From Metabacillus flavus (GTDB lineage Bacteria; Bacillota; Bacilli; Bacillales; Bacillaceae): a stretch of 64,000 bases of DNA. Made by a program: the position numbers and the translations under genes. Numbering within the stretch: the stretch's first letter is position 1; every line of letters starts with the position of its first letter. Shown piece after piece: positions 8,349-52,125 of this stretch. A model generated the notes under the pieces. It was not told the DNA's origin and made no database searches. It worked only from the letters and a program-made list of their open reading frames with translations. Where the stretch lies: the NCBI RefSeq assembly GCF_018283675.1, contig NZ_JAGVRK010000001.1, positions 930,001 through 994,000 on the forward strand, given 5' to 3'.

Positions 8349-8450
8349 AGCGCTGTTAAACTTAGCTGTTGATTTCCGCTGCAGGCGTTCGCTTTCTGCT
8401 CCAATCAACAAACAGGTGTCAAAAAATCAACACCATGCTTTAAAATAGCC
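8349..8450. mobile_element. MITE copy 1 (internally deleted, ~102 bp)
   Basis: Ends AGCGCTGTTAAA and TTTAAAATAGCC (imperfect inverted repeats) are flanked by the 8-bp direct repeat ATAATATT at 8341-8348 and 8451-8458. The inner sequence matches both ends of the 180-bp copy at 51875-52054, but the GC-rich middle is missing. It inserted just past the stop of the 68-aa gene. Confidence 0.8.
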
Positions 8451-30245: not shown

Positions 30246-30345
30246 AGCTCTGCTAAACTTGGCTGTTGATTTCCGCGGAAGGCGTCTCACGCCTTCCGCT
30301 CCGATCAACAGGTGTTAAAAATCAACCTTATGCTTTAACATAGCC
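30246..30345. mobile_element. MITE copy 2 (internally deleted, ~100 bp)
   Basis: Ends AGCTCTGCTAAA and TTTAACATAGCC, flanked by TTTCTGAA (30238-30245) and TTTCTAAA (30346-30353), an 8-bp target duplication with one change. Its body matches the two ends of the 180-bp copy. It lies between the GH114 start and the ldh promoter. Confidence 0.8.
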
Positions 30346-51465: not shown

Positions 51466-51513
51466 TTTCTCCCAGTAAAAATATGAGTCAGTCCACCAGC
51501 AAAAATTGAAGAA

Positions 51514-51532
51514 CATTCAAACGACTATTTGA
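51514..51532. promoter_or_regulatory. CadC-type operator 1
   Basis: ATTCAAACGACTATTTGAC: ATTCAAA and TTTGA(A/C) half sites as in ArsR/CadC operators; it overlaps the -35. Confidence 0.7.
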
Positions 51533-51557
51533 CTATAATGATGGCAAGTTTTATACT
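51529..51557 (+). promoter_or_regulatory. Promoter of former cad locus
   Basis: -35 TTGACT, 17-bp spacer, -10 TATACT: near-consensus and still intact although the genes behind it are ruined. Confidence 0.75.
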
Positions 51558-51560
51558 TAT

Positions 51561-51580
51561 ATTCAAATAAACGTTTGAAT
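51561..51580. promoter_or_regulatory. CadC-type operator 2
   Basis: ATTCAAATAAACGTTTGAAT, a 7-bp perfect dyad with a 6-base spacer, very like the known pI258 cadC operator; 3 bases after the -10. Confidence 0.82.
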
Positions 51581-51594
51581 GAGGGGATCCCGAT

Positions 51595-51711
51595 ATGGAA
51601 GAGATGAAGGATGTATGTGCGGACGTTTGCGCAACGGAAGAAAAGGGCTCAAGGATTAAGGGCGCTCTTCAGAAAAAGAATCCGGGAGCGGTTGTCAGAT
51701 GGCGAAGGTGA
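51595..51711 (+). pseudogene. cadC: cadC remnant (5' end of cadmium-responsive ArsR-family repressor)
   Basis: 38 codons starting MEEMKDVCADVCATEEKG, matching the N-terminal metal-sensing arm of CadC (Cys residues 8 and 12) and its DxxxRI(K/Q)GxLQ continuation. The helix-turn-helix and the remainder are gone; at about codon 29 the sequence becomes unrelated and stops. It lies behind an intact CadC-type promoter with two operators. The following DNA is the end of cadA, so an internal deletion removed most of both genes. Confidence 0.75.
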
Positions 51712-51789
51712 TGGGATGCTGTAGCATTTTTTGGCCTGGTCTAACAACAAGAACGTCCCCAGTTTAATCAGCACACCGTTTCTTGCTGC

Positions 51790-52125
51790 GTTTCCAATGG
51801 CAACCAGAAAACTCGCCGCACACGTTCTGGTGGTTCCGGGCTGGCTTACCTTATGGATTGCTATTTTTGCAGATGGCTCTGTTAAAGGCTAATGTTGATT
51901 TTTAACACCTGTTGATTGGAGTGGAAGGCGCGAGACTGCGGGAGCAGCGGGACAGGTGAGACCCCGCAGGCCCAAAGCGTTGAGGAGGCTCACCGCCCGC
52001 CCCGCGGAAAGCGAGCGCCTGCAACGGAAATCAACAGCCAAGTTTAACAGAGCCTTGCAGATATGGGTGCGACGCTTCTGGTTACGCTGAACGGATTGAG
52101 ATTGCTGAAGGTAAAGGATCGCTAA
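51790..52125 (+). pseudogene. cadA: cadA remnant (3' end of Cd2+/Zn2+ P-type ATPase), split by a MITE
   Basis: Before the MITE the sequence encodes LAAHVLVVPGWLTLWIAIFAD; after it MGATLLVTLNGLRLLKVKDR and a stop, which together are the last two TM helices and C-terminus of a CadA/ZntA-type ATPase. Deleting the MITE and one copy of the 8-bp repeat TTGCAGAT joins them in frame (IFAD-MGATL). The ATP-binding and metal domains are absent, so it is dead. Confidence 0.85.
51875..52054. mobile_element. MITE copy 3 (full length, 180 bp)
   Basis: Perfect 12-bp terminal inverted repeats GGCTCTGTTAAA / TTTAACAGAGCC with exact 8-bp target duplications TTGCAGAT at 51867-51874 and 52055-52062. The middle is GC-rich and highly self-complementary. 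No ORF. End sequence and 8-bp duplication resemble ISL3-family elements, which is the likeliest source of transposase. Confidence 0.92.

What the first reader, a model, noticed from the sequence alone, without database searches (positions are those of the whole stretch)
51867..52062. MITE with exact 8-bp target duplication sits inside a dead cadA gene; removing it restores the frame
The 180-bp element has perfect 12-bp inverted ends (GGCTCTGTTAAA) and identical flanks TTGCAGAT. Taking out the element plus one flank joins ...WLTLWIAIFAD to MGATLLVTLN..., the CadA C-terminus. This fixes the element's ends to the base and gives an order of events clues: the target was still recognisable cadA DNA at insertion.
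Basis: partly seen in the sequence, partly recalled or inferred. Interest (0 to 1): 0.75.

Follow-up and report, generated by a model that had tools for sequence, protein, structure and literature searches.

The report
Mobile hairpin element inside dead cadA
A 180-base non-coding jumping element has landed in a broken cadmium-pump gene; its ends belong to one transposon family, but its folded middle recurs across the bacterial order inside jumping elements with other ends, so the middle seems to be kept for its shape.

Summary
Four syntenic records, probably three genomes, show the empty site with one TTGCAGAT; G002 keeps cadC and cadA open. ISL3 is not supported: no PF01610 match in the genome, while IS1595-family elements carry these ends and duplications.

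The surprise is the core (51910-52036). It folds as one long hairpin with strong covariation (23 pairs changed on both sides, shuffles 7.8), has no Rfam match, gives 115 model matches in this genome, and the element matches 290 of 397 genomes of the order. It sits between ends of two IS1595 clades and, in this same genome, between IS1182-like ends with a compensated basal stem.

Function is unproven; I favour a fold that makes insertions tolerable at gene 3' ends. Limits: 49 of 180 sampled copies had no recognised ends, the resident IS1595 transposase looks short, and earlier description cannot be excluded.

The parts
51867..51874 (.). target duplication, left copy TTGCAGAT
   Evidence: single copy in relatives
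51875..52054 (+). whole element (type A MITE), 180 bp; no ORF over 53 aa touches it
51875..51910 (+). left end, 36 bp, 86% identical to ends of IS1595-family elements in L094 and L096
51910..52036 (+). structured core (covariance model R1, 133.4 bits)
52030..52054 (+). right end, 25 bp, like IS1595 ends; its inner ATCAACA is shared with the foot of the core
52055..52062 (.). target duplication, right copy TTGCAGAT
51595..51697 (+). remnant of the start of cadC (part of a 187-bp stretch 79% identical to G002)
51763..51801 (-). inverted scrap of cadA, 82% identical to G002
51809..51874 (+). remnant of the 3' part of cadA, upstream of the element
52055..52125 (+). last part of cadA with its stop codon, downstream of the element

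Best explanation
The feature is a non-autonomous IS1595-family element (a MITE): two IS1595 ends around a structured non-coding core in place of a transposase gene. An IS1595 transposase acting in trans inserted it into cadA-derived DNA and duplicated 8 bp (insertion and duplication shown by empty sites; the enzyme inferred from shared ends and duplication length). The core is not a leftover of that transposon: it is a folding module of about 130 bp, widespread in the order, that also sits between ends of a second IS1595 clade and, in the same genome, between IS1182-like ends (shown, with the limits given). Covariation shows that the fold is kept by selection, and an excess of G.T over A.C at covarying pairs suggests that the listed strand folds, most simply as RNA (inferred). 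Favoured role, not shown and about 0.3 likely on its own: the hairpin insulates, ends or stabilises read-through transcripts near gene 3' ends, so that insertions carrying it are tolerated and reach high copy number.
For: Empty sites and duplications. IS1595 elements with the same ends: 7 of 24 PF12762 loci, six with exact and one with a 7-of-8 duplication; element 1-36 and 156-180 match them, and the core has no match better than E 0.1 in those seven. Second IS1595 end type in 8 further loci of the 24, seven exact duplications, on a separate transposase group. Core covariation: 23 pairs changed on both sides against 7.8 +/- 1.7, score 0.147 against 0.077 in 49 genomes; 90.4% Watson-Crick against a shuffle maximum of 83.9 in 84 genomes. 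G.T share 0.71 against 0.60 in shuffles, 0 of 500 as high. Ends: 70 of 180 copies type A on both sides, 27 type B on both. Host-genome type D copies with stem GGCTGATT/AATCAGCC and IS1182-like ends. 115 model matches in the genome.
Against: The one IS1595 transposase in this genome is 316 aa against 341-367 for intact ones and may be dead. 49 of 180 copies had no recognised ends, and one-sided calls (34) lie near the shuffle level. In the 40 host-genome copies the fold is less well kept (88.9% against a shuffle maximum of 86.5; pair 32-99 is G-C in 19 of 40). Short copies without the core top carry duplications too (window 8349-8450, exact), so the core may not be needed for movement. Type D copies show no orientation bias (4 sense, 6 antisense), which speaks against a one-way RNA role. 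No expression data.
Confidence: 0.75

Rival explanations
1. An ordinary IS1595 MITE whose middle is inert filler; likeness across genera reflects horizontal transfer and recent common origin.
For: Plasmid copies exist in 14 records of several genera; host-genome copies keep part of the fold only loosely.
Against: Changes on both sides of 23 pairs against 7.8 in shuffles; the core is kept while ends differ, and host-genome type A and type D cores are only 78% alike.
Confidence: 0.12
2. The fold matters as DNA, not RNA: a single-stranded or cruciform hairpin used in transposition or bound by a host protein, as proposed for other palindromic repeats.
For: Folding as DNA is strong too (z -6.4); core-deleted short copies look like deletions across a hairpin.
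Against: G.T share above shuffles favours one strand; short copies with exact duplications suggest that the core is not needed for movement.
Confidence: 0.25
3. ISL3-family MITE.
For: 8-bp duplications and a GGCTCT start would also suit ISL3 (recalled, not from a call).
Against: No PF01610 match in the genome; IS1595 elements carry these very ends. PF01610 was found in 3 of 8 other genomes searched, whose ISL3 ends I did not read.
Confidence: 0.02

Closest known systems
IS1595 family of insertion sequences
   Same: GG-starting inverted ends, 8-bp duplications (PMC8101967, passages), and the same ends as PF12762 elements here.
   Different: No transposase gene; an unrelated structured core in its place.
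MITE-like repeats of the Bacillus cereus group (bcr1, bcr2, bcr3)
   Same: Short mobile intergenic repeats, often part of transcripts (PMC3446304, passages).
   Different: Not compared by sequence here; bcr1 is described as specific to the B. cereus group in a reference title seen.
Bhal-1 stem-loop family of Bacillus halodurans (PMC2267715)
   Same: A folding intergenic repeat in a member of the same broad group: 74 bp, 36 copies (table passage).
Fold-forming MITEs such as Correia and ERIC
   Same: Mobile intergenic repeats that can change transcripts near genes (PMC10969869, passages).
   Different: From recall, I know of no such core shared by MITEs with ends of different transposase families; other hosts.

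Membership tests
IS1595-derived MITE | ends match autonomous IS1595 elements | tested here: met
   7 of 24 PF12762 loci, one of them in the host genome with less exact ends
IS1595-derived MITE | 8-bp target duplication | tested here: met
   24 of 40 exact, 36 of 40 within one mismatch; empty sites
IS1595-derived MITE | no transposase gene inside | tested here: met
   longest ORF touching the element 53 aa
IS1595-derived MITE | working IS1595 transposase in the same genome | tested here: inconclusive
   one PF12762 gene, 316 aa against 341-367 for intact ones
IS1595-derived MITE | moved by that transposase | not testable with these tools
   needs a movement assay
ISL3-derived MITE | ISL3 transposase with matching ends in the genome | tested here: not met
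   PF01610: 0 matches in the host genome
structured RNA (core) | compensatory changes beyond shuffles and slid controls | tested here: met
   49 genomes; 84 genomes
structured RNA (core) | is transcribed | not testable with these tools
   no expression data at hand
known Rfam family (core) | match to a curated family | tested here: not met
   window stretch up to E 1: two unrelated weak matches outside the element; 6 loci at gathering score: none
B. cereus group bcr repeats | sequence identity with bcr1-bcr18 | not tested
   no bcr sequences were compared

The most novel reading that the evidence does not exclude
The core is a structured RNA module, widespread in the order, that spreads by being carried in MITEs of different transposases (IS1595 clades A and B, IS1182-like) and changes carriers by recombination within cores: a non-coding cargo that outlives its vehicles and acts on transcripts at about a hundred sites per genome.
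Probability: 0.35. Interest if true: 0.85.

Novelty: new variant of a known kind. Interest (0 to 1): 0.62.

Why it matters
MITEs are mostly treated as deletion remnants whose middle has no meaning. Here the middle is the conserved part and the ends change. If that holds, it is a testable case of selection on non-coding cargo of bacterial transposons, in a repeat with no Rfam match that is common in Bacillus-like genomes.

Tried and rejected
ISL3 partner: rejected for the host genome. General homogenisation of cores within the genome: mostly rejected, since type A and type D cores there are 78% alike while type D cores are 81% alike to type B cores elsewhere; two mixed copies (L264 middle core, L270) show some exchange. 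A one-way hairpin role for the upstream gene's transcript: weakened, since type A copies follow a same-strand gene in 30 of 40 (31 of 41 rows, one a repeat), but type D copies show 4 sense and 6 antisense; both counts rest on a crude ORF caller. Dating the insertion against the loss of cadA: not possible from these loci. A third end type, GAGGGCACTGAAAAA: one copy in the sample (L190) and one PF13751 element with similar ends (L335); left as a lead. Target duplications of type D copies: none seen in the printed flanks, no systematic test. Pfam on the short cadC/cadA pieces: no match.

Literature: all ten searches are. No listing named this repeat; four strings of its sequence gave 0 papers. 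I saw passages of PMC2267715, PMC3446304, PMC8101967 and PMC10969869, and only listings and abstract starts of the rest; supplements and most subscription papers were out of reach.

Rows dropped: one search used one copy per genome (84 of 180 rows) plus, apart, the 40 host copies; of 53 prepared sequences 49 were aligned, four (L130, L184, L196, L199) left out by hand, three or four of them more diverged, which may flatter but not; one search dropped L178 (a repeat of L006), cores under 80% identity or of odd length, which raises its mean identities; one search read 13 of 30 fetched PF13751 loci; one search found recognised ends in 8 of 17 loci. The structure tested was folded from a consensus-like core, so the slid controls favour it by construction; the shuffles do not.

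Full report
Check of the observation. The element is at 51875-52054, 180 bp, with perfect 12-bp inverted ends and TTGCAGAT on both sides. Syntenic records of G001, G002, G005 and Bacillus sp. SJS hold the empty site with one TTGCAGAT; the last two probably are one genome, both contigs being 131003 bases. In G002 the locus keeps open cadC and cadA, the latter a heavy-metal P-type ATPase by NCBIfam. Placed apart on G002, the window's two flanks overlap by exactly 8 bases. In the window cadA is dead beyond the insertion: most of it is missing and a 39-bp piece lies inverted. G001 and G005 also keep only the edges of the operon, with other breakpoints, so the order of deletion and insertion stays open.

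Copies. A search with the 196-bp region gave 42 places in the 4.03-Mb genome, 40 of 178 candidates being scored. With ends placed by terminal-repeat match alone, 24 of 40 copies have exact 8-bp duplications, 36 of 40 at most one mismatch and 4 more than one; pairing flanks of different copies gives 6 and 45 of 1560. The duplicated 8-mers are 93% A+T on average; the window's (62.5%) ties for the lowest. Terminator-like hairpins lie beside 13 left and 8 right junctions of 40, against 70 of 4000 control windows. So the family mostly lands at gene ends, and the cadA site is unusual.

Partner. PF01610 (ISL3) has no match in the genome. PF12762 (IS1595) has one, and 14 of 40 genomes of the relatives set have it, 24 matches in all. 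Seven of these 24 loci, one of them in the host genome, have GGCTCTGTTAAA-like ends and 8-bp duplications, six exact and one 7 of 8. The element's first 36 bp match ends of L094 and L096 at 86%, its last 25 bp match too, and the core has no match better than E 0.1 in the seven. Eight further loci have ends of a second kind, GGCTST(T/G)TTCGTA with TTGTTG further in, with 8-bp duplications, seven exact; nine of the 24 showed no recognised ends. Transposases with the two kinds of ends form separate groups: mean identity 40% between, 57% and 67% within, several of the 15 being fragments. The host's own IS1595 gene is 316 aa against 341-367 for intact ones, so the active partner may be lost.

Core. 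The element matches 290 of 397 genomes of the order and 100 of 135 genera; many distant genomes match only about positions 37-161. A draw of 299 genomes of the phylum gave 4 matches: the host, one of the same family, one of the same class, and a 25-bp piece in one of the same phylum. Fourteen plasmid records and no phage record matched. Copies of different genera fold alike, as one long hairpin (L182 differs in part). On 49 sequences of 49 genomes 94.7% of cells pair (shuffles 90.7), 23 pairs change on both sides (7.8 +/- 1.7) and the covariation score is 0.147 (0.077); slid versions reach at most 0.040. With one copy from each of 84 genomes, 90.4% of cells are Watson-Crick against a shuffle maximum of 83.9. 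In the 40 host copies the gain is smaller, 88.9 against 86.5, and one helix is poorly kept. At the 19 covarying pairs G.T outnumbers A.C by 62 to 25, a share of 0.71; shuffles of the same columns give 0.60 and none of 500 reaches 0.71. The sequences are related, so this is a pointer to a folding listed strand, not a proof. Rfam has no match. A covariance model finds 115 places in the host genome at E up to 0.001, 150 of 1197 candidates scored.

Carriers. Of 180 core copies, 41 rows from the host genome included, both ends are type A in 70 and type B in 27; one end only is recognised in 34 and none in 49. The threshold (0.70) is near the 99% point of shuffled flanks (0.71), so one-sided calls are weak. 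By genome: type A in 45, type B in 17, neither in 22, both in none; many genomes gave one copy only. Of 43 further host copies read, 12 have the type A stem, 25 another stem, GGCTGATT/AATCAGCC or close to it, and 6 mixed or odd stems. The 25 (type D) share a different surround, with outer ends like GGGGCTGTCTAAAAAGTC: both ends score 13 of 18 or more in 7 of 31 rows, in none of 860 shuffled controls. A PF13751 element in G030 (L315) carries such ends, 17 and 15 of 18. PF13751 stands for the IS1182 group from recall. The two PF13751 elements of the host genome have other ends, so the type D partner is not in hand. L264 holds three cores in a row, the middle one with a type D foot on the left and a type A end on the right; L270 is a similar mix.

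How it most likely works. Shown: a non-autonomous element with IS1595 ends, inserted with an 8-bp duplication, whose core fold is under selection and found with several kinds of ends. Inferred: IS1595 transposase moves it in trans; the listed strand folds, most simply as RNA. Guessed, about 0.3: the hairpin insulates, ends or stabilises transcripts at gene 3' ends. Type A host copies follow a same-strand gene in 30 of 40 (less one repeated row). Of 22 host copies without the type A stem 12 lie between convergent genes and none between divergent ones, with no orientation bias. An effect that works from either side fits this better than a one-way one; selection against insertion upstream of genes would give the same picture without any function.

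Known or new. A MITE with IS1595 ends is a new member of a known kind. A covarying core shared by MITEs with different transposon ends is a variant that I did not find in the ten searches made. Bhal-1 and the bcr repeats were not compared by sequence, so earlier description in part cannot be excluded.

Noticed in passing
window 8349-8450 (-): A 102-bp copy with most of the core missing and an exact duplication AATATTAT on both sides.
   Followed up: partly
window 30246-30345 (-): A 100-bp copy reduced to a short perfect hairpin, duplication 7 of 8 (TTTAGAAA / TTCAGAAA).
   Followed up: partly
L264 (G000:C1:3151564-3152452): Three cores in a row, the middle one a mix of type D and type A ends.
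   Followed up: partly
L092, L101 (relatives): IS1595 elements that carry a second ORF besides the transposase; by eye a methyltransferase-like and an acetyltransferase-like protein, no domain search made.
   Followed up: no
L221-L224 (G338): Pairs of cores in opposite orientation, some 500-800 bp apart, at several places in one genome.
   Followed up: no
L138, L139 (G157, G231): A more diverged class of cores (76-77% identity) near ordinary ones.
   Followed up: no
window 51511-51801: Decayed cadC/cadA region with an inverted cadA scrap; relatives G001 and G005 lost cadA with other breakpoints.
   Followed up: partly
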